A stretch of 64,000 nucleotides of DNA from a virus, in IMG/VR virus record IMGVR_UViG_3300009503_000022, positions 1 through 64,000 of that record; one strand, written 5' to 3'. The first letter of the stretch is position 1, and every line of letters starts with the position of its first letter. The position numbers were made by a program, and so were the translations under genes. Below the pieces are notes generated by a model, which saw nothing but the letters and a program-made list of their open reading frames with translations, made no database searches and was not told the origin of the DNA. Below, in pieces: positions 11,613 through 33,267 of the stretch.

Positions 11613-14399
11613 TTATAAACTACTACCATTAATAAAAATCTCATCAGGATTATAACCAGAAATTATCTTTTCAATCATTTCTCTGTCTTTTTTCAAGTTA
11701 ATACCCTTCGTACATCGCCAAATAACAACAACTTTTTTATCTTCTTTTTCACCAAAAACAAATACATATTTTCTTCCATCCTCTATAAGAAACTTATACT
11801 TATTTATAGTTAATCCCAAAAGATAATTAAATGTTTCGATTAAATCTATATTAACAATTTCTTCTCCTTTGTTACCTGAAATAATTTTCATTTTATATTC
11901 AAAAGGATTTTCAAAATCCTGAATGTTTAATAATGATTGACAACATTCGATTTTATGCCTTAAAAAATATTTCATTAGATATTCATTTCCAAATAGTTCA
12001 AATGCACTCTGCCCTTTGTCTTTGTTTACAAATTCAATATTGTGTAATGTATCTTCATATTGTTCAAGATAATGATATTTTAAAAAAACTCCAATTCCAT
12101 CTATATCCTGTGGTTTCCCCTCTTTCCAATTAAAAGAATAAGCAATTTTTTTCATTCTTGGAATAATAATAGTATCAAAATAATCTGCCATCTCTACAAG
12201 AATAAATTTTCTTTTACCTCCATCTTCTTTATTGAGTTTCATAACTGCGTGTGCGGTTGTGCCTGAACCCGCGAAGAAGTCAAGGATAAAAATTTTATCT
12301 TCTTCAATCATACTGATCAGAAATTTTATAAAGTGTATCGGTTTAATTGATTGTAGAGATATAAGTTCCATATCCCTTATTATTTTGCTTTCATTATTCA
12401 TATCCTTCTCAAAATCGTAGAAATCAAAATAAGAAATTTCTGTTTGGGCACTATTTAATTCCTTTCTTATCTTTAAAGGAATTCCTTGATAATAGACAGT
12501 ATTTATTGTTCTCTCATCAGGATTTTTTATATATCTGAAACCAAAACCATCATCACCTATGCCATAAACTTTATATAAATAGTTATAATTTTTTTCTTTT
12601 TCGAATAATGGTCTTAAGTTTTCTTCGTAAAATTTTTCAGTAAATTGAGCAGTTTTTATTTTCCCTCTTATTGATATAGGTTTAACAATATAAAAATCAT
12701 TTATCTCACTACATTCAATTATCTCATATTGGTCGGGTCTGAAACATTCTATTTTATATTTACCAATTGTAAAAGTTTTGAAGGGTTTATCTTTTTCTAT
12801 AATTTTTAACTTATATTCTGAAAAATCGTAATCAACTTTTTTCTTTTTTATAGACATTTTTTCTGATTTTGAAAATACCAAACAATACTCTATTGATTTT
12901 TGAAAAATAGATTTCTGTGTTAGTTGTCTAGCTGGGTTTCTCATTTTTATTTTTAATTTTTCAACTTCAAAATAAAAACTTCTCATTATATTATAAAGAT
13001 TACTGACTTCATTATCATCAATACTTACAAAAATAACTCCATCGTCTCTCATCAATCTCTTTGCCAAACTCAATCTATTTTCCATCATAGTAAGCCAAGA
13101 AGAATGCTGGTATTTATCCTTATAGAGAAATTCATCATTTCCTGTATTATAAGGTGGATCAATGTAAATAGTCTGCACTTTATCTTTATACTTATTCAAA
13201 ATCAAATTTAATGCCTGATAGTTTTCGCTTTTAATCAAAACTCCATCTAATAATTCATCAATATTTCCTTTCTCTGATAATTTTTCTAATAATCTTTCTT
13301 TAAAATCCTGACTGAAATATTTTGTATCTATAGGTAGTTTTCTGCCTTTTATATCATTTTTATCTTTTATTTTGCCAAACCCTAACTCCTCCCATTCCTT
13401 TAATTGCTGATTATTCTTAAAAATCTCATCATAAAACTCTAAAGGTATCCTATCCATTGTAATTACATATTCGGTTTTTAAAACAAATTTCTTCTTCTCC
13501 CATAGTAGTTTCTGAAATTCTTCAATTTGAGCAAGAAATTTTATAATTCTCTTTGCAATTTCATCAACAACCTTTGCTCTAATAATATGTTTTGATTCTA
13601 AATTATTAAGGTCAACAATCTCTGTTTTTATATAATAATCGAGTTCTCTTTCTAAAAATCCTTTCAAGTCCTTATGAATAAAGAAATCACTAATTTCAAT
13701 ATGCATATATTTACAAAGATGTTTTTCTAAAATTGTTTTATTATCTTTTATTTTCGAAAAAATTTCTTTAAGTTCAATTTCGCTAATTTGTTCAACAATT
13801 TTATCTTTTATAATATTATTAAGCATTTTTTGCTTTATATCTGCTGTTATTTTATAATTCTTAATATCTTCATCAGACAAATATCTATACTCAAAATATA
13901 TAATACAACTTTTTTGTTCTTTATTAACCTTGATAAAATCATTTTCCTTTAAGAAAAAATATTTTCTCTTATTATTGATATTTCTCACTTCTATAAAAAC
14001 AGTTTTAAATATAATCCTCCATCCTTCCAAATCAAAACTATAATCTTTAAAAATCTCATTAGTATTTACATAATACTGATCAGAATTTATCCAATAAAGT
14101 TTTACATCTTCACCACTATGAGGAATAATACACTTTCTTGAAATAAAATTACCATTTTCATAATATCTTAAAAAAAATCTATAAAGATCATCAAAAATTT
14201 GATTTTGCATAAATTCATCAATCTGATATTTATACTTCTCAAATTCACCTTCTATTACCTGAACAAGTTCACCTTTAACAAAATCTTCTATCTTCTTTCT
14301 TTTATAATTCATAATTCGATAAATACCAAAATCAAATTCACTAATATCAAATTGACACAAAATTCTAAATAATTTTTCTAATCTTTCTATCATACCCAT
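11613..14399 (-). CDS. Type III-like (Mod) adenine-specific DNA methyltransferase
   Basis: 928 residues, longer than a typical type III Mod because of a roughly 370-residue helical N-terminal region beginning FDFGIYRIMN. The methyltransferase core has catalytic IDPPYNTGND before the SAM motif DFFAGSGTTAHAV, the beta-class order of type III Mod enzymes. No Res subunit is next to it, so it probably protects phage DNA. Its codons look less A+T-biased than its neighbours by eye, suggesting later acquisition. Confidence 0.85.
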   Translation of the reverse strand: MGMIERLEKLFRILCQFDISEFDFGIYRIMNYKRKKIEDFVKGELVQVIEGEFEKYKYQIDEFMQNQIFDDLYRFFLRYYENGNFISRKCIIPHSGEDVKLYWINSDQYYVNTNEIFKDYSFDLEGWRIIFKTVFIEVRNINNKRKYFFLKENDFIKVNKEQKSCIIYFEYRYLSDEDIKNYKITADIKQKMLNNIIKDKIVEQISEIELKEIFSKIKDNKTILEKHLCKYMHIEISDFFIHKDLKGFLERELDYYIKTEIVDLNNLESKHIIRAKVVDEIAKRIIKFLAQIEEFQKLLWEKKKFVLKTEYVITMDRIPLEFYDEIFKNNQQLKEWEELGFGKIKDKNDIKGRKLPIDTKYFSQDFKERLLEKLSEKGNIDELLDGVLIKSENYQALNLILNKYKDKVQTIYIDPPYNTGNDEFLYKDKYQHSSWLTMMENRLSLAKRLMRDDGVIFVSIDDNEVSNLYNIMRSFYFEVEKLKIKMRNPARQLTQKSIFQKSIEYCLVFSKSEKMSIKKKKVDYDFSEYKLKIIEKDKPFKTFTIGKYKIECFRPDQYEIIECSEINDFYIVKPISIRGKIKTAQFTEKFYEENLRPLFEKEKNYNYLYKVYGIGDDGFGFRYIKNPDERTINTVYYQGIPLKIRKELNSAQTEISYFDFYDFEKDMNNESKIIRDMELISLQSIKPIHFIKFLISMIEEDKIFILDFFAGSGTTAHAVMKLNKEDGGKRKFILVEMADYFDTIIIPRMKKIAYSFNWKEGKPQDIDGIGVFLKYHYLEQYEDTLHNIEFVNKDKGQSAFELFGNEYLMKYFLRHKIECCQSLLNIQDFENPFEYKMKIISGNKGEEIVNIDLIETFNYLLGLTINKYKFLIEDGRKYVFVFGEKEDKKVVVIWRCTKGINLKKDREMIEKIISGYNPDEIFINGSSL

Positions 14400-14988: not shown

Positions 14989-17067
14989 TTACATCATATC
15001 TGTTATAATTTCGCCTGCTTGATATTCAATATTACTTTCTATAAATTCTCCTCCCTCTTTACTTTCTTTAAGTTCCTCTACAAATAACTGCTTAATTGCT
15101 CCAACAACAGTATCTGTCAAATCTTTTTCTCCTTCTTCTGTATGATCTACCTTACCATCTTCCTTTCTTTCTAATTGCTTAATTTCTGTTAACAACTCTT
15201 CTATATCTAATAATTCAATTCTTTGAGAATAAATAAATTCCATAAAATTATTATAATCTTTAACTGTTAACGTATATGCATCGGCTTTTATACCATCGTT
15301 CCTCAAATCTTGAATAAAAAGACTAGACTGCCAATGATCAAAAAATACTATAATATTTATTCTATTGGATATCTCTTTAATAATTTGTCTAATATTAGGA
15401 AACGATACTATATATCTTACTTTAGTTACTTTATCAATAGGTCTCCAAACAGTAGAACAATCGTGTATTGCTCTTGCACCTTCTCTATGAAAAATAGACA
15501 TTCCACATTTATCGTGCTTTTCCCCCAAATCTATAGTTAAAATATATGTAAAATCTTCTAATCCAATATTCCATTTCTTAATTTTTTTCTTAATCTCACC
15601 ATTTTCCATATAATCTTCAAATTCAACTATAGGTTTTCTAAATTCATTAACACAAGCATATAACTTATCTGGATATTCTATAAATGGTGATTGAGATCCA
15701 GGAGGCATACACATATACATTGACTTTGCCATTGTAGGATTACGATCAAAGGTTGATTTAAAATCTATAGGTATCTTATAAATTTTTTTAACATCATTAT
15801 TATTCTTATCCTTCACTATAACTTCAAAATCAAATGTAGGTCTATCTTTATATAATTCTTCTTTTACTTCCCAAGTAAACGCAGTATCTGCATATATATG
15901 CAAATCCGACTCTGCTAATTTAATTAATCGTTTAATAAATCCTGACTCTGTTCTTGGATAACTAATAACAAAACCTTTATATTTATTTCCAAATCTAGAT
16001 TCTGCAGACGTTTGAAGCATATTAAATATTTTATCTGCATTTCTCGTTTTAGTTTTATCTTTAAATGCATCTGCTTCATCCATAGTAAACATTAATAAAT
16101 TTAAACCTTCTGTACTCTCTTGTTCAGAATGCCTACTAAATAATCTTATTAAATTTGGAAATAATATAGCGTTTGTTCCAATTCTTATTTCATTTCTTAA
16201 TTCGACAATATCCTTTTCACTAATATATGAATTACTTATCTTAATATTAAAATACTGCTTAAACCATAAATTATTTATTACTCTTTGTTTTAATTTTTCA
16301 AAAAATACAAATTTTGCCTGTTCTCCTGAATATGCAACATTAACAATATCTATAGCTTCATTATCGGGTAATCCTAATAACTTCTGAGGATTATTACAAC
16401 ATAATAAAAAATAACAACAATATAAAGTCATAAGTGCACAAATTGTATCCTTACCTGAATTATGATGTAAAATATCATTTAAAATCATATTCTTATGTAT
16501 TGGAGAACAAAATCCATAAAATTCTTCTTCTCCAATCTCTTCTATACTTTCTATTTCATCAAATTCTAATATTTCATTTATTTTATATATATCATAATTA
16601 TATACGTGAAATTCTATATTCATCTTTTTTGCAAATTCTTTTGCAGCATTACATTTTATCTCGAATATAGGACTATTTTTAGTAAAATTACTTTTAATCT
16701 CTTCTATCCAAATTGAAGCATTTTCATTATCTATAACTAATAAATCTGGAATATAATTATGTTTAATTCCATCAATATAATACGGTATTTTCATAGGTTC
16801 GTGAAAAAATATATATCCATTATTATCTAATTCAATCATTCTTACTAATTCATAATTAGAATTATATTGTTGTATACCATTATTTTTAAATTTATATTTT
16901 CCACATTTTGCCTTACTCCTATTAAAAGTTTTATTTATAATTTTATTAGATATAGTTTCAGAATTATGTTCTTTATTCTTTTTAAATCTACATTTATCGC
17001 AATATTTTCTTCCATATACACTAATAAATAATGAATTACAATTTTTACATATCATTTCTTTTGGCAT
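14989..17067 (-). CDS. terL: Terminase large subunit, C-terminal part with intein C-half and nuclease
   Basis: 692 residues. Residues 1-203 are not terminase: a zinc ribbon (ICKNC, YCDKC), a PD-(D/E)xK-like nuclease segment (NYIPDLL, then IEEIKS), and an intein C-terminus ending ILHHN. From Ser204 the chain reads SGKDTICALM, the second half of a Walker A loop, then Walker B TMDEADAF and an RNase H-like nuclease with Asp in ILTIDLG, FFDHW and DLTDTVVG. The first half is in the overlapping upstream ORF. ATG 17067 has TAGGAGATAG about 12 bases upstream. Joining the halves gives WGKG-SGKDT. If active, this is the packaging motor and headful nuclease. Confidence 0.85.
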   Translation of the reverse strand: MPKEMICKNCNSLFISVYGRKYCDKCRFKKNKEHNSETISNKIINKTFNRSKAKCGKYKFKNNGIQQYNSNYELVRMIELDNNGYIFFHEPMKIPYYIDGIKHNYIPDLLVIDNENASIWIEEIKSNFTKNSPIFEIKCNAAKEFAKKMNIEFHVYNYDIYKINEILEFDEIESIEEIGEEEFYGFCSPIHKNMILNDILHHNSGKDTICALMTLYCCYFLLCCNNPQKLLGLPDNEAIDIVNVAYSGEQAKFVFFEKLKQRVINNLWFKQYFNIKISNSYISEKDIVELRNEIRIGTNAILFPNLIRLFSRHSEQESTEGLNLLMFTMDEADAFKDKTKTRNADKIFNMLQTSAESRFGNKYKGFVISYPRTESGFIKRLIKLAESDLHIYADTAFTWEVKEELYKDRPTFDFEVIVKDKNNNDVKKIYKIPIDFKSTFDRNPTMAKSMYMCMPPGSQSPFIEYPDKLYACVNEFRKPIVEFEDYMENGEIKKKIKKWNIGLEDFTYILTIDLGEKHDKCGMSIFHREGARAIHDCSTVWRPIDKVTKVRYIVSFPNIRQIIKEISNRINIIVFFDHWQSSLFIQDLRNDGIKADAYTLTVKDYNNFMEFIYSQRIELLDIEELLTEIKQLERKEDGKVDHTEEGEKDLTDTVVGAIKQLFVEELKESKEGGEFIESNIEYQAGEIITDMM
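16459..17067 (-). other. Terminase split-intein C-half with PD-(D/E)xK endonuclease
   Basis: Residues 1-203 of the downstream terminase ORF. The end matches intein blocks F and G (EEFYGFCSPIHKN, then ILHHN before Ser). The preceding 160 residues carry a zinc ribbon and a PD...EIK nuclease that probably acts as a homing endonuclease. Confidence 0.7.
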
Positions 17068-17650
17068 ACGCGATACTATCTCCTATTTTCAATTCCTTTA
17101 TTTTTTTCCAACCATTTTTAGTATACAATTTATGATTCTCATCAACTTCTATTATTTTACCTAATTTTGTTTTTATTCTGTATATTTTTGCTTTACCTTC
17201 TTTAAATATAGGTTTAATCGTAGTAATAACCTTTTTTCTTTTATGAAAATCAATAGCTTCTACATTTATTGGTTTTTTCAAACTTTCCCACTCTTCTACT
17301 GTATGTCTTTCTTTAGTAATTTTATCTTCTATAATAGTACCTTTCCGAAAACCTCCTTTCCCCCATTCTAAGACTGCCAAATTGAAAATTGGATTATCAA
17401 ATATATTCTTATTAATATTATTTTTGTTCTTTACATAATCATCATAAGTATATCCATATAACATTGCATAACAAGCATCTAATTGCCTTTTCGTTAATTT
17501 TATAAAATTACAAAATTCTTTATCTTCAACAAAATTTTTAAATTCAATAGGTTCAAATCCTTCTTTAAATATAGATACTTTTTTTATACCATCTATTTCA
17601 TTTTTTTTATCTTTTATTATCTTATTTAAATCACTGTAAAAATCCTGCAT
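17045..17650 (-). CDS. terL: Terminase large subunit, N-terminal part with intein N-half
   Basis: 201 residues. Residues 1-99 are the terminase N-terminus, ending LAVLEWGKG, the first half of Walker A. Residues 100-201 are an intein N-half: GFRKGTIIED (block A, with Gly where Cys or Ser is normal), IYRIKTKLGK, then VDENHKLYT (block B with its His) and LKIGDSIA. The ORF ends 23 bases inside the next one, in a different frame. It overlaps the small subunit gene upstream. ATG 17650 has AGGAGATG upstream. Deleting one A in the AAAA run near 17058 would fuse both frames, so a frameshift is the alternative to a natural split. Confidence 0.8.
   Translation of the reverse strand: MQDFYSDLNKIIKDKKNEIDGIKKVSIFKEGFEPIEFKNFVEDKEFCNFIKLTKRQLDACYAMLYGYTYDDYVKNKNNINKNIFDNPIFNLAVLEWGKGGFRKGTIIEDKITKERHTVEEWESLKKPINVEAIDFHKRKKVITTIKPIFKEGKAKIYRIKTKLGKIIEVDENHKLYTKNGWKKIKELKIGDSIAYAKRNDM
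17048..17353 (-). other. Terminase split-intein N-half (Gly1)
   Basis: Residues 100-201 of the upstream terminase ORF. The Hint-fold pattern is clear (FRKGTI, VEEW, GKAKIYRI, NHKLYTKNGW, IGDSIA). The first residue is Gly (GGT), whereas active inteins normally begin with Cys, Ser or Ala; the block B Thr is also replaced by Asp. Confidence 0.7.
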
Positions 17651-27569: not shown

Positions 27570-29015
27570 TTACTTTTCTTTCAAAAGTTTTATATCTATC
27601 GAAGATAATTCGTCACTTTTTAATTCATTTCTAATTTCTTCAGAAGTAGGAATATATATACCCAATTGCTTCATAATTTTTTCTCTATCAGAACAAACTG
27701 TATTTATAGATGCATAATCTGAAACATCATCATCAACTTTATTTCGACCACAAGGTTTAAATAAACGTCCAAAACAATTACTTAAATAATAAGATTTTGC
27801 ATATTCACATTTATTCTTTAAATCACATGACGGAAAAAGATATTTCGCTAATAATGGAAATACTTTTTCTACTTCTTTTCTACATAACCAAGCAAAAGCA
27901 ACTGTAGCATCTGCTTCGCAATTATGTAAAGCACAATTCATAGTACAATACGAATTATGTTCTTCGACTTCTAAATTATATACTTTACCTGTATATTTTG
28001 AATTAAACTTTATTATACCACAAATCTTACTAATTTCATATTTTTTTGTAAATTTTTTATCTTGATCTATAATCGGAAATGCTACGAAATCTCCTTTATT
28101 TAATTCTTCAACTTTAATAAAATCTAATTTATTGTATATCTCATTATTTGAAATTTTATTAATAACTTCTTTTTTAATACCATATACTTTATGATTTCCT
28201 GTAATATTAAATGTATATAATTTAAAATTAGATGTATAACTTATATTATATATATCCGAATAACAATCATTACTTATAGTCTCTATAACTTTTTTAAATT
28301 CTCCTAAATGAGTTAAAACCCTTTCACCTATAGATATATCTTCAATATTCTTTAACCCATTTTCTGTTATTATCTTTGTCCCGGGCATCAAACAAAATTT
28401 CATTCTTTTAGACAACATATTTTGCAAAGCAGCAAAATTACAAGAAAAACTAAATGCATGAGTATTTGAAATTGGAAGTATACTTCTAGCAGATTGCCAA
28501 TTAGATATTCCTTGTTCAACTATCTTTTTATAAACATCCTTACATTTTTTAGCAGCTTCAATAAAATCTTTTCTTAATTCTTCGTTTTCCCAAATATCAT
28601 CATGAACAAAAAATCCAGCATCTAAATGAGAATTATCTCTAGTACCTCTACTAGAAAAAACAATACCAACTCTAGCTCTAGCTATTTGATCAAATGCCCA
28701 GCGAGGAATATTTTCTACAGCAAATGTAAAATGAGGAGCTTCTAATGCTAACGGTAACGCATTTCTTGTAAGAACGGCTTTAATCACTTCATATTTACCC
28801 TCAAGCGAAGTATCTTCCCATTTATCAATTTTTTTACCCCAACAAGATGTAGCTAATACATACATTGCTTTATATGGATTTCTAGAATAATCAATCAATT
28901 TAACAGAATCTTTCATTCCTGTAACTCCATTATAAAAAACTGTTTTAAATTCAGGATCTTCATCTGGAAGCGTACCCATTATTTTTCTTAATTTATTAAT
29001 ATCATTTTTATTCAT
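27570..29015 (-). CDS. thyX: ThyX-like flavin-dependent thymidylate synthase with intein
   Basis: 481 residues, of which 158 are an intein (residues 208-365). The exteins match ThyX: ALEAPHFTFAVENI, then ARARVGIVFSSRGTRD in place of the RHR..S signature, AARSILPIS-type helix (SARSILPISNT) and LSKRMKF-CEADATV. His of RHR is Ala, so catalysis or substrate could differ from ordinary ThyX. The intein sits in the conserved region near the substrate Arg. ATG 29015 has AAAGGAGGATTTA. Confidence 0.8.
   Translation of the reverse strand: MNKNDINKLRKIMGTLPDEDPEFKTVFYNGVTGMKDSVKLIDYSRNPYKAMYVLATSCWGKKIDKWEDTSLEGKYEVIKAVLTRNALPLALEAPHFTFAVENIPRWAFDQIARARVGIVFSSRGTRDNSHLDAGFFVHDDIWENEELRKDFIEAAKKCKDVYKKIVEQGISNWQSARSILPISNTHAFSFSCNFAALQNMLSKRMKFCLMPGTKIITENGLKNIEDISIGERVLTHLGEFKKVIETISNDCYSDIYNISYTSNFKLYTFNITGNHKVYGIKKEVINKISNNEIYNKLDFIKVEELNKGDFVAFPIIDQDKKFTKKYEISKICGIIKFNSKYTGKVYNLEVEEHNSYCTMNCALHNCEADATVAFAWLCRKEVEKVFPLLAKYLFPSCDLKNKCEYAKSYYLSNCFGRLFKPCGRNKVDDDVSDYASINTVCSDREKIMKQLGIYIPTSEEIRNELKSDELSSIDIKLLKEK
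27921..28394 (-). other. ThyX mini-intein
   Basis: Residues 208-365: CLMPGTKIITENG (block A), ITGNHKVYG (block B with His), EVEEHNSYCTMN, ending CALHN before Cys+1. Too small for a homing endonuclease. Confidence 0.85.
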
Positions 29016-29043: not shown

Positions 29044-32000
29044 TTATTTCCTTAATTTAATTATATAATTTTCATACAATTTTTTTAAATCTAAAACTCT
29101 TTGATCTCCATTACATTGCAATATTGGAACTCTACCTTTATTATCCTTCTTTAATTTTAAAACAACAAATCTATCTTTTCGTAATAATTCTTTATTATTT
29201 TTATACTCTTTATCCCAAGCAAAAAATGTTATTTTAGAATAATCATCCATCAAACTTATTACATACATATTTTTATTCTTTTTAGTTTTTCGCATCAAAA
29301 CACTTTCTATCATACCATATACATACGATTCTCCTTCGGCTAATTTACAAAATTCAGTAATAGACATTATATTTAATTTCTTAAAACATTTTTTAAAATC
29401 ATCTTTAAATATCTTATCAGACAAATAAACTTTTAATGCGTCAATTTCTAATTTCATAAGATCTTTTTTACTTAATTCTACAAAATTTTCTTCACTTTTT
29501 TTAATACTATAATATTCTTTTAATAACTCATTTCTATCATCAAAAGAATCAAATGCTCCAGAATAAATCAAATATTCTACTTTAGTTTTATTACATTTAA
29601 CTTTATCTAAAAAATCTTTAAAAGATTTAAATGGCCTCTTTTTTATTATTTCTTGTCCTAAATTACCAATATTTTTTATATGATTAAACCCATATATTAT
29701 TGTATTATCATCTAAAATAGAAAAATCTAACTGTGATCTATTAATATCTGGGTTCAAAACATTTATACCATTAATTCTAGCATAATTAATATAATCAGCA
29801 AGAAAACTAGTTGTATTTTTTCCTTCTTTGCCTCTTGGAGTATTATTTATCAAAGCAGTCATAAATTCTATAAAATAATATTTTTTAAGCCACATTTCTT
29901 GATAACTTATCATTGCATAACCACAAGAATGAGAATTATGAACTACAAATTCATTAGCGATATAACAATGATTAATATCTTCTACTTCAATATCGTATGT
30001 ATGTCTTTTACCACAATATTTTATTTCTTTTACTACATCTAAATCAAATATATTAAAATCTCTTAAAAATATAGTTATTTCCATACCCTTTTCTAATTCG
30101 GACAATTTTAACCAATTTCTAAACACTAAAAATTTATGATCTGCAGAACTTATTATCTGTCTATTATCTCGAGTTTTTAATACATAACATTTTTTAATTC
30201 CAGTATCGTAAACATTTTTTATTTTTACAGGTTTAAGCTTTCCATCAATATACGAACATATATATATACTTTTATTAGATGAATGAAATTTTTTATACAA
30301 TTCGCATATTTCTATTTCATCAACAATTCCTTTTTTAACATTAGTATAATACAATACCTTAGAATTTCCTGCTAAACATTTATTAAATCCATATTGAGAA
30401 AATGATGCCATTTCTTTCCATAAATTTTCTGCTTGTTCTCTTGTAATAAATTTAGTAGCATTATTTATAAATTTATCTTTATATGATTCTACCTCTGCAA
30501 ATCTTTTAGATTCTACCTCTGCAGATCTACCATATTTAACTAATGCTTTTCTAAATCTATTTGCTTCAACTAAATCAAAATTCGCGATTTTTTGAGCAAT
30601 TAACATAATAGATTCTTGATAAACTATTATTCCATAAGTTTCTTTCAATATATCTTCTAAACATTTTGGTATAGTATATTTCCCAGTAAACTTTCTTTTA
30701 GCAAAATCTTCGTGCATTCCTAATCTTAAAGGACCCGGTCTTAACAATGCATTCGTCGCAATTAATTCATTAAAATTACTTGGTTTAATTTTAGCAATCA
30801 AATCTCTAGCAATCCTCGATTCAAATTGAAATATTCCTACAGTATCTCCATTCCATATCTTTTTATAAACATTTATATCATTCAAATCTATAGAATCTAA
30901 ATTAATATCTTTATTATATCTTTGTTTTATTAATTTTAAAGTATCTCTTATAACAGACAAATTAGTTAATCCCAAAATATCAAATTTAACAAATCCTAAT
31001 TTAGATAATTCGTGATAATCAGACCCTTCTTGCCAAGCACTTAATATATTATTTTTTTGTGTCATCAATGCAATATTTTCACTTAAATTTCTATCTGATA
31101 TAATTATTCCTGCTGCATGCCTACTTATATTTCTAATTTTTCCTCTTAACTTTTCCAATATTTTTTTAACTTCAGGATATTTATCAAAATAATCCTTAAC
31201 TTCAGGAAAATTATTTTCTATTTCCTCTATTGTCATATCGTCACTATCAGACGTCAATACATCTCTAGTTAATCTTAAAGATTCTATTAAAGGTATATTT
31301 AACACTCTACCTATATCTAAAATTGCACTTCTTGTTTTAAAAAATCCATAAGTACCTATTGCACAAGTTTTTTCTTTAGAAAATCTATTAAAAATATATT
31401 CAACAACTTTATCTCTATCATCAGAAGAAAAATCTACATCAATATCTGGAGGATCCTCTCTACCTTCGCTCATAAATCTTTCAAATAATAACCCATATTT
31501 AATAGGATCTAATCCTGTAATATTTAATAAATAACAAACAAGAGATCCTGCACCTGATCCTCGTGCTTTTCCTACATAAATATTATTTCTTTTAGCCCAA
31601 TTAATTATATCTTCTAAAATTAAAAAATAACCAACAAACCCTAATTTTTTAATAATCCCTTCTTCATATTTAACTCTATCTCTATATATTTTTTTAGTTT
31701 TTTCATCTAATTTATCAAAACCTTTTTCTTTCCAGCCTTTCACTAATTTATTATGAAAAATCTCTTCATCATTATCATATAATTTAGGTAATTTAATAGA
31801 AGTATCTAATTCGATATTTTCTACTTTATCAATTATTTCTCTTACGTTTTTAACAGAATCTTTATAAACTTCTTCTGTAAAATATTCATTTTCATAAAAA
31901 TCTTTAAATGATCTATACATTTCAAACTGATTTTTATAATATAAATCTTTAGACTTAAATTGCCATATTTCATCAGGATTTTTTTCTTTATCTTTCATCG

Positions 32001-33267
32001 TTTTATTATCTCTTATCATTAACAATATATCGTGAATTTTACTATCTTCTTTTTCGATATAATGACAATCATTAGTAATAACAGTTTTTATTCCAAGTTC
32101 TTTTGCTAATTTACACAATAATTTATTAATAATAATCTGTTCTTTTAAATCTATTAATAACAACTCTATATACAAATCATCTCCGAATATTTGTTTATAA
32201 TTTAATGCTATTTCTTTTGCCTTATCATAATTATTTTTTGATAACTCAGTAGATATCTCTCCACCTAAACAACTAGTTAAACAAATTAATCCTTCGGAAT
32301 GTTTCTTTATAAATTCTATATCAGTTCTTGGCTTAAAATAAAATCCATTAATCCAAGCATCTGAAGAAATCTTAATTAAATTATTAAAACCTATTTTATT
32401 TTTAACTAAAAGTATAATATGATTATTTTTTTTAAATAATTTATAATCTTCACTTTTAACATTATCCTTATATTCTAACTTATTACGATAATTATTTATA
32501 TATAATTCGCATCCAAAAATAGGTTTTATTCCATATTTTTTTGCTTCAAAATATTGTCTTATCCATCCACCAATTTGACCATGATCTGTTATACTACATA
32601 CATCTAACTTATTATTATAAGCAAATCTAACATATTCTTCAGGAGAACATAAACCATCTCTAATAGAATAAATACTATGACAATGTAATTGTACAAATTT
32701 ATTCCTATTATTTTTTATTTCGTCAATTTTATCTTTTATATTTAAAAGTTGTTTAGAATATTCTTCTATTTTCATTTTTCCATAATTACAAAAACTTGGA
32801 TGATAAATAGAATAATATAAAATACCTTTTTCTACTTTTAACTCATTATTTTCTTTTAATCCAAAATAATTAGAAGCAAATTTACCTACAGTTATTATTA
32901 TTTTAGGCCTAACTATTTCTATTTCTCTTAATAAAAAATCTTTACAATTTTCTAATATATCATCTGAAGGCATAACATTATTCTTAGTAGAACATTTTAC
33001 AAGATTAGTTACATAAATATCTTCAAAATCTAAACCTACATTTTTTAACATAGATTCAAATATTGGTCTTATTTTATCATCTAAAAAAATTTTATTATTT
33101 ATTCCTCTATTATCTCGATAACAAGAAGGATTCTGTGCTATAAACATTATATCTGCTTTTTCATTTCCAGAATATTCTACTATTTCTTCATTTACTTTTA
33201 TAGATATTTTAATTTTACATTTTTTACAATTTCTACATTCTTCGTATATATTTTTAATATCATTCAT
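29044..33267 (-). CDS. dnaE: DNA polymerase III alpha subunit with N-terminal UDG-like domain and intein
   Basis: 1407 residues. Residues 1-175 are a family 4-like uracil-DNA glycosylase domain: CRNCKKC, IAQNPS, VKC...ENC with 15 residues between, and YHPSF, the pattern of an Fe-S UDG. A PHP domain follows (QLHCHSIYSIRDG, SITDHG), then the polymerase core with catalytic PPDIDVDF (residues 606-613), and a C-terminal OB domain. Residues 964-1111 are an intein after YGFNK. No beta-clamp or tau genes are visible here, so the phage may use host ones. It overlaps the methyltransferase gene by four bases. Confidence 0.92.
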   Translation of the reverse strand: MNDIKNIYEECRNCKKCKIKISIKVNEEIVEYSGNEKADIMFIAQNPSCYRDNRGINNKIFLDDKIRPIFESMLKNVGLDFEDIYVTNLVKCSTKNNVMPSDDILENCKDFLLREIEIVRPKIIITVGKFASNYFGLKENNELKVEKGILYYSIYHPSFCNYGKMKIEEYSKQLLNIKDKIDEIKNNRNKFVQLHCHSIYSIRDGLCSPEEYVRFAYNNKLDVCSITDHGQIGGWIRQYFEAKKYGIKPIFGCELYINNYRNKLEYKDNVKSEDYKLFKKNNHIILLVKNKIGFNNLIKISSDAWINGFYFKPRTDIEFIKKHSEGLICLTSCLGGEISTELSKNNYDKAKEIALNYKQIFGDDLYIELLLIDLKEQIIINKLLCKLAKELGIKTVITNDCHYIEKEDSKIHDILLMIRDNKTMKDKEKNPDEIWQFKSKDLYYKNQFEMYRSFKDFYENEYFTEEVYKDSVKNVREIIDKVENIELDTSIKLPKLYDNDEEIFHNKLVKGWKEKGFDKLDEKTKKIYRDRVKYEEGIIKKLGFVGYFLILEDIINWAKRNNIYVGKARGSGAGSLVCYLLNITGLDPIKYGLLFERFMSEGREDPPDIDVDFSSDDRDKVVEYIFNRFSKEKTCAIGTYGFFKTRSAILDIGRVLNIPLIESLRLTRDVLTSDSDDMTIEEIENNFPEVKDYFDKYPEVKKILEKLRGKIRNISRHAAGIIISDRNLSENIALMTQKNNILSAWQEGSDYHELSKLGFVKFDILGLTNLSVIRDTLKLIKQRYNKDINLDSIDLNDINVYKKIWNGDTVGIFQFESRIARDLIAKIKPSNFNELIATNALLRPGPLRLGMHEDFAKRKFTGKYTIPKCLEDILKETYGIIVYQESIMLIAQKIANFDLVEANRFRKALVKYGRSAEVESKRFAEVESYKDKFINNATKFITREQAENLWKEMASFSQYGFNKCLAGNSKVLYYTNVKKGIVDEIEICELYKKFHSSNKSIYICSYIDGKLKPVKIKNVYDTGIKKCYVLKTRDNRQIISSADHKFLVFRNWLKLSELEKGMEITIFLRDFNIFDLDVVKEIKYCGKRHTYDIEVEDINHCYIANEFVVHNSHSCGYAMISYQEMWLKKYYFIEFMTALINNTPRGKEGKNTTSFLADYINYARINGINVLNPDINRSQLDFSILDDNTIIYGFNHIKNIGNLGQEIIKKRPFKSFKDFLDKVKCNKTKVEYLIYSGAFDSFDDRNELLKEYYSIKKSEENFVELSKKDLMKLEIDALKVYLSDKIFKDDFKKCFKKLNIMSITEFCKLAEGESYVYGMIESVLMRKTKKNKNMYVISLMDDYSKITFFAWDKEYKNNKELLRKDRFVVLKLKKDNKGRVPILQCNGDQRVLDLKKLYENYIIKLRK
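29935..30378 (-). other. DnaE mini-intein
   Basis: 148 residues: CLAGNSKVLYY (block A), SADHKFLVF (block B), YDIEVEDINHCYIANEFVVHN at the end, next residue Ser. The insertion is three residues after the Y-C junction used by the cyanobacterial split DnaE intein. Confidence 0.88.

What the first reader, a model, noticed from the sequence alone, without database searches (positions are those of the whole stretch)
14989..17650. Terminase large subunit split by an intein inside its Walker A motif
Two overlapping ORFs in different frames encode TerL. The first ends WGKG plus an intein N-half; the second starts with a zinc ribbon and PD-(D/E)xK nuclease, ends its intein with LHHN, and resumes at SGKDT. 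Splicing in trans would rebuild the P-loop exactly. Intein residue 1 is Gly instead of Cys or Ser, which would block the normal first step. The alternative is a one-base frameshift in an A run near 17058. Split inteins with a nuclease between the halves are known; the Gly1 and the nuclease fused to the C-half make this case unusual.
Basis: partly seen in the sequence, partly recalled or inferred. Interest (0 to 1): 0.85.

Follow-up and report, generated by a model that had tools for sequence, protein, structure and literature searches.

The report
Split terminase intein lacking Cys1
A phage's DNA-packaging motor is encoded in two overlapping genes that a self-splicing protein element, one that carries its own DNA-cutting enzyme, must join back together, and this element has lost the amino acid that normally starts the splicing reaction and seems to have replaced it with a cysteine elsewhere in its active site.

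Summary
ORF1 (17045-17650 -) carries the TerL N-extein ending WGKG plus a 102-aa IntN. ORF2 (14989-17067 -), in another frame, carries a TnsA-like PD-(D/E)xK nuclease, a ~38-aa IntC and SGKDT... TerL. Joining them rebuilds GKGSGKD, the P-loop of related intein-free TerLs. A second, near-identical assembly has the same frames, so random sequencing error is unlikely.

Scans of IMG/VR gave about 34 TerL genes with inteins at this site. In 26 of the 28 with both halves, residue 1 is Cys and C2:4 is Asp. Only the window and one divergent contig (L065) have Gly1. Both are split at the same place with overlapping ORFs, both fuse the nuclease to IntC, and both share Gly at C2:4, a new Cys at C2:6 and Asp at N3:7. 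Their inteins are sisters (100/98; 57-76% identical), but their TerL exteins are only 34-42% identical and are rejected as sisters (AU p about 1e-60). The Gly1 intein has therefore apparently moved between TerL genes, which a non-splicing intein in an essential gene should not do.

Best reading: a mobile, naturally split, Cys1-less intein that works like class 3 but fails class 3's defining triplet (WCT). Trans-splicing and the Cys role are inferred, not shown.

The parts
17354..17650 (-). TerL N-extein (ORF1 aa 1-99, ending ...NLAVLEWGKG)
   Evidence: Aligns with N-terminal parts of intein-free TerLs up to GKG; 44% identical to the L037 N-extein
17045..17353 (-). Intein N-half (IntN, 102 aa plus stop), first residue Gly (codon 17353-17351), block B VDENHKL with His N3:10 and Asp N3:7
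   Evidence: PDB inteins E 4e-8; Pfam PF14890 E 4.4e-7; family alignment
16573..17067 (-). TnsA-like PD-(D/E)xK nuclease domain (ORF2 aa 1-165), preceded by a Cys4 motif; catalytic E73, P107-D108, E123xK125
   Evidence: Pfam PF08722 E 1.2e-5; invariant catalytic residues across nine nucleases; model best matches TnsA 1t0f/1f1z, E 4e-4 to 9e-4
16459..16572 (-). Intein C-half (IntC, ORF2 aa ~166-203), C2 motif FYGFCSPIHKN with Gly at C2:4 (aa 185) and Cys at C2:6 (aa 187, codon 16509-16507); ends HHN
   Evidence: Gapless alignment with 26 Cys1 relatives at the same site; 76% identical to L065 IntC
14989..16458 (-). TerL C-extein (ORF2 aa 204-692, starting SGKDT; stop codon included)
   Evidence: tblastn to phage TerLs, E down to 6e-33; no second TerL in the 110,355-base record
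17045..17067 (-). Overlap of ORF1 end and ORF2 start (translational coupling proposed); AGGAG 12 nt upstream of the ORF2 ATG
   Evidence: Sequence; L065 has an ATGA overlap at the same place

Best explanation
This is a naturally split, mobile intein in the P-loop of a phage terminase large subunit. ORF1 (N-extein + IntN) and ORF2 (nuclease + IntC + C-extein) are translated as two proteins, probably coupled through their overlap. IntN and IntC associate, and the intein joins WGKG to SGKDT to make a working TerL. The nuclease is the homing enzyme that spreads the element into intein-free TerL genes, and it stays on the IntC after splicing. Because residue 1 is Gly, the class 1 first step cannot occur. 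The proposed route is class 3-like: the cysteine of the IntC C2 motif (YGFC, position C2:6) attacks the N-scissile bond, passes the N-extein to Ser+1, and Asn cyclization (HHN) releases the intein. Shown from sequence: the split, the insertion site, Gly1, the co-varying active site and the horizontal spread. Inferred: trans-splicing, the role of the Cys, translational coupling and the homing activity.
For: Joining rebuilds GKGSGKD exactly, and there is no other TerL in the record. The same frames occur in a second assembly. Divergent L065 has the same architecture: Gly1, a split at the same point with ATGA overlap, the nuclease fused to IntC, and YGFCSP. Among 28 TerL inteins at this site with both halves, Cys1 plus Asp C2:4 occurs in 26 of 26 others; G1, Asp N3:7, Gly C2:4, Cys C2:6 and Ser C2:7 occur only in the Gly1 pair. 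The Gly1 inteins are sisters (100/98; trait columns left out). Their exteins are not: L065 pairs with Cys1-bearing L070 (100/100), and a Gly1 extein clade is rejected with dlnL 92, p-AU 1.3e-60. Placing either intein with its extein partner is also rejected (p about 1e-4). Identities are IntN 57, IntC 76, nuclease 52 against exteins 34-42%. Codon-position-3 differences exceed positions 1 and 2 in IntN, nuclease and IntC. Nuclease catalytic residues are intact. Class 3 inteins with Asp at N3:7 are functional (PMC7891396). Class 2 needs Asp F:4 and Thr B:7 (PMC4031507), and both are lost here.
Against: There is no experimental evidence of splicing. The Cys is at C2:6, two residues past the class 3 position, and in a model of a Cys1 sister it lies just beyond the strand that ends at C2:4, so reach to the scissile bond is unproven. 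Trp N3:12 and Thr C1:5 of class 3 are absent (here Leu or Phe, and His). In the AceL NrdHF class 3 intein, Ala1 to Gly abolished splicing (PMC7891396). The Gly1 type rests on two lineages only. Ser+1 could in principle attack directly.
Confidence: 0.62

Rival explanations
1. Split intein that splices by a class 2-like route: with Gly1, Ser+1 attacks the N-scissile bond directly and the C2 cysteine is structural or redox-regulatory.
For: Gly1 with intact His N3:10, penultimate His, Asn and Ser+1. [quoted passage not shown]
Against: Known class 2 inteins use Cys+1 and require Thr B:7 and Asp F:4 (PMC4031507); here +1 is Ser, and Asp and Gly replace the two helpers. The Cys arose together with Gly1 and is kept in both lineages.
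Confidence: 0.18
2. Degenerate intein: Gly1 has killed splicing, and the two polypeptides are a broken TerL or work as a non-covalent pair.
For: Residue 1 and Asp C2:4, both invariant in the other inteins examined, are lost. A1G kills AceL NrdHF.
Against: The same changes recur in a divergent virus. The intein and nuclease are more conserved than the exteins and have apparently moved between TerL lineages. Selection on protein sequence is visible. There is no second TerL, and unspliced P-loop halves could not bind ATP normally.
Confidence: 0.12
3. Cis intein read through by programmed +1 frameshifting, or a one-base sequencing error, so that TerL is a single precursor.
For: The frames overlap in a stretch open in both, with an AAAA run.
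Against: Two assemblies agree. The divergent L065 shows ORF1 TGA and ORF2 ATG overlapping as ATGA with a different local sequence, and no shared slippery site. ORF2 begins with its own ATG. Other inteins at this site are also split.
Confidence: 0.06

Closest known systems
AceL NrdHF split class 3 intein (PMC7891396)
   Same: Phage-like fractured gene, naturally split at the usual site, no nucleophile at residue 1, Cys in the C2 motif, Ser+1, homing nuclease at the locus.
   Different: Different host gene (ribonucleotide reductase) and a separate GIY-YIG nuclease gene. Its Cys is at C2:4 with Thr C1:5, and residue 1 is Ala (Gly is not tolerated). Here residue 1 is Gly, Cys is at C2:6, C1:5 is His, and the nuclease is fused to IntC.
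Class 1 (Cys1) inteins at the same TerL site (this study: L037, L046, L048, L049, L061 and others; cis forms in Erwinia Alexandravirus phages)
   Same: Same insertion point (GKG|SGKD or AGQR|SGKS), homologous splicing domain, often split, often PD-(D/E)xK nuclease.
   Different: All have Cys1 and Asp C2:4. In the split ones examined the nuclease (PD-(D/E)xK, or HNH in L045) is fused to IntN, not IntC.
Class 3 inteins (MP-Be DnaB, MchDnaB1; PMC5222942, PMC7664689)
   Same: No residue-1 nucleophile; a Cys in the C2/F block; Asp or Gly at N3:7 tolerated.
   Different: Defining WCT triplet (Trp N3:12, Cys C2:4, Thr C1:5) not met: Leu/Phe, Gly, His here.
Class 2 inteins (Mja KlbA; PMC4031507)
   Same: No residue-1 nucleophile.
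   Different: Ala1, Cys+1, Thr B:7 and Asp F:4 needed; here Gly1, Ser+1, Asp B:7 and Gly F:4.

Membership tests
Split intein (HINT) | Two separate ORFs, each an extein plus a complementary part of the splicing domain | tested here: met
   ORF1/ORF2 in different frames in two assemblies, and the same split in L065
Split intein (HINT) | Block A/B and F/G motifs with His N3:10, penultimate His, terminal Asn, Ser/Cys/Thr+1 | tested here: met
   VDENHK ... LHHN|S; PDB intein matches
Split intein (HINT) | Trans-splicing activity | not testable with these tools
   Needs expression of both halves
Class 1 intein | Cys1, Ser1 or Thr1 | tested here: not met
   Gly at residue 1 in the window and L065; Cys in 26 of 26 other site members with both halves
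Class 3 intein | No nucleophile at residue 1 | tested here: met
   Gly1
Class 3 intein | Cys at C2:4 (F:4) | tested here: not met
   Gly at C2:4; Cys at C2:6 in a gapless alignment; a register shift cannot be fully excluded without a structure
Class 3 intein | Trp N3:12 and Thr C1:5 | tested here: not met
   Leu (Phe in L065) and His
Class 3 intein | Branched thioester on the C2 Cys as first intermediate | not testable with these tools
   Biochemistry needed
Class 2 intein | Cys+1 with Asp F:4 and Thr B:7 | tested here: not met
   Ser+1, Gly F:4, Asp B:7 (requirement from PMC4031507)
TnsA-like PD-(D/E)xK nuclease | E ... PD ... ExK core in the TnsA N-terminal fold | tested here: met
   E73, PD107-108, E123xK125 invariant in nine homologues; Pfam E 1.2e-5, 0.3 bit under cutoff; fold match to TnsA at E 4e-4
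Homing endonuclease | Cuts intein-free TerL and drives copying | not testable with these tools
   Only indirect: the intein and exteins have different trees

The most novel reading that the evidence does not exclude
The Gly1 inteins are an independent, fourth catalytic arrangement: a class 1 intein at one TerL site lost Cys1 and Asp C2:4 and gained an internal nucleophile at C2:6, giving a splicing-competent, mobile split intein outside classes 1, 2 and 3. This would be a natural class 1 to class 3-like conversion, which has been called improbable (PMC7664689).
Probability: 0.45. Interest if true: 0.85.

Novelty: new variant of a known kind. Interest (0 to 1): 0.74.

Why it matters
[quoted passage not shown] Here a Cys1-less type sits among Cys1 inteins at a single insertion site, so the change can be studied with close relatives on both sides. 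In AceL NrdHF, Gly at position 1 abolished splicing, so a Gly1 intein that splices would widen the known chemistry. The literature searched describes a single natural split class 3 intein, and split inteins are in demand as protein ligation tools; one that needs no nucleophile at its N-terminus could be a useful addition.

Tried and rejected
Sequencing error: rejected by the second assembly and by L065. Programmed frameshift: no shared slippery site, and ATGA in L065. A Gly left in the N-extein (WGKGG|F): rejected because related exteins have one Gly between Lys and Ser. A second, intact TerL in the record: none found. Typical class 3 membership: WCT not met. Searches by single proteins found only the near-identical contig or nothing, and alignment A1 was too diverse to scan; degenerate DNA patterns across the splice junction worked. 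Further scans for YGxCxPxHKN and YGFCxPxHxN in viral and cellular contigs and for WG[KE]GG...HK at the N junction gave no third Gly1 intein; the remaining hits were unrelated proteins or spurious ORFs, apart from Cys1-bearing L114. Folding IntN and IntC together was not possible because they are not one open frame; a Cys1 sister (L061) was modelled instead.

Full report
OBSERVATION. The window is the first 64 kb of a 110,355-base IMG/VR virus record. ORF1 (17045-17650, minus) and ORF2 (14989-17067, minus) lie in different frames and overlap by 23 nt. ORF1 holds the TerL N-extein (99 aa...NLAVLEWGKG) and a 102-aa intein N-half; its best PDB match is the Ssp DnaB mini-intein (E 4e-8). ORF2 holds a nuclease, the intein C-half ending LHHN, and the rest of TerL from SGKDT. 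Against intein-free TerLs of Rhodococcus, Streptomyces and Brevibacillus phages the joined exteins give an ungapped GKGSGKD P-loop, so the intein's first residue is Gly. No second TerL was found in the record.

NOT A SEQUENCING ERROR. A second IMG/VR contig (IMGVR_UViG_3300027863_001052) matches 12,634 bases with four substitutions and no indel, so the frames are the same there. The stretch open in both frames contains nothing longer than AAAA. More decisively, a divergent relative shows the same split (below).

RELATIVES. A degenerate DNA pattern for HN-SGKD-x8-Y-xx-Y found 36 stretches in viral contigs. All but one (L050, a chance match) encode a TerL with an intein at this same P-loop position. 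Some repeat one another in the stretch examined. Both halves could be read in 28 loci. Erwinia Alexandravirus phages carry a cis Cys1 intein at the homologous place, AGQR|C...HHN|SGKS. The site is therefore an intein hot spot, with cis and split forms and with PD-(D/E)xK, HNH or (by eye) LAGLIDADG-like nucleases. In the split Cys1 forms examined the nuclease is fused to IntN.

THE GLY1 TYPE. Twenty-six of the 28 have Cys1 and Asp at C2:4. Two do not: the window (represented by L059) and L065 (contig IMGVR_UViG_3300028887_003666). Both have Gly1, Asp at N3:7, Gly at C2:4, Cys at C2:6, Ser at C2:7, and His-Lys in place of the usual residue pair there. None of these states occurs in the 26 others. 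The C2 alignment is gapless against close Cys1 relatives (FYDLEIPETHNYIAQDIVHHN against FYGFCSPIHKNMILNDILHHN). In L065 ORF1 ends and ORF2 begins with an ATGA overlap, and ORF2 again begins with the nuclease and continues into IntC and TerL. The nucleases keep E...PD...ExK, and the window's nuclease model matches TnsA best.

MOBILITY. With the trait columns left out, the Gly1 inteins are sisters (100/98) inside a tree that is otherwise all Cys1. Their TerL exteins are not sisters: L065 pairs with Cys1-bearing L070 (100/100), and a Gly1 extein clade is rejected (dlnL 92, p-AU 1.3e-60). Placing L065's intein with L070's or the window's with L037's is also rejected (p about 1e-4). The window and L065 are 57% (IntN), 76% (IntC) and 52% (nuclease) identical, against 42 and 34% for the exteins, with differences concentrated at codon position 3 in IntN, nuclease and IntC. 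The simplest reading is horizontal spread of an intact, splicing-competent Gly1 intein with its nuclease. This argument is indirect. It assumes TerL is essential and that spread needs splicing.

MECHANISM. Shown: loss of the residue-1 nucleophile together with Asp C2:4, and gain of Cys at C2:6, in both lineages. Inferred: that this Cys makes the first attack, as Cys C2:4 does in class 3 inteins (PMC7891396; PMC5222942), followed by transfer to Ser+1 and Asn cyclization. Class 2-like direct attack is less likely because known class 2 inteins use Cys+1 and need Asp F:4 and Thr B:7 (PMC4031507). The open problem is geometry. In a confident model of the Cys1 sister L061 (pLDDT 89), C2:4 is the last residue of its strand and C2:6 lies two residues beyond (the model resembles Ssp DnaB). 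Gly1 also abolished splicing in AceL NrdHF.

PLACE AMONG KNOWN SYSTEMS. It is a split intein by architecture. It is not class 1 (no Cys1), not class 2, and fails two of three class 3 signature positions outright and the third by position. It works most like a split class 3 intein, of which the literature searched reports one natural case, AceL NrdHF (PMC7891396). A structural study held that class 3 inteins could not evolve directly from class 1 (PMC7664689). The nested position of the Gly1 type would bear on that if splicing is confirmed.

LIMITS. Two lineages only; metagenome collections could not be scanned; no two-chain structure could be made; no biochemistry. The N-junction scan was limited to WG[KE]GG and one spacing range. 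The Cys4 'zinc ribbon' is not supported by a significant family match. Literature was limited to open-access papers.

Noticed in passing
window 29044-33267 (-), aa ~963-1110: The DNA polymerase III alpha gene contains a second intein with Cys1 (CLAGNSKVLY...FVVHN|S), in frame and without an obvious nuclease.
   Followed up: partly
window 27570-29015 (-), aa ~208-365: A thymidylate synthase (ThyX-like) gene contains a third intein with Hint matches (Cys1 ... CALHN|C); three inteins in one phage.
   Followed up: partly
window 29044-33267 (-), aa 34-167: A uracil-DNA glycosylase domain (PF03167, E 7e-18) is fused to the N-terminus of the PHP/DNA polymerase III alpha protein.
   Followed up: no
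L043 9177-9734, L061 2071-2529: Cis mini-inteins whose sequence runs from IntN straight into the start Met of the split relatives' IntC (NTMIKFDEIESI / TTIMIKFDEIESI), as if a split intein had been re-fused by loss of the nuclease.
   Followed up: no
L114 (minus strand): Intein at a position shifted by about one residue: WGEGG|CVSGN...NHN|SKDF, leaving an unusual GEGGSKD P-loop if spliced.
   Followed up: no
L036 (minus strand): TerL with what looks like a second intein downstream of the P-loop one (FSKH|CVSGDTLILTPFGWKK...).
   Followed up: no
window 11613-14399 (-): 928-aa N6/N4 DNA methyltransferase (PF01555, E 1e-29), apparently alone, two genes downstream of TerL.
   Followed up: no
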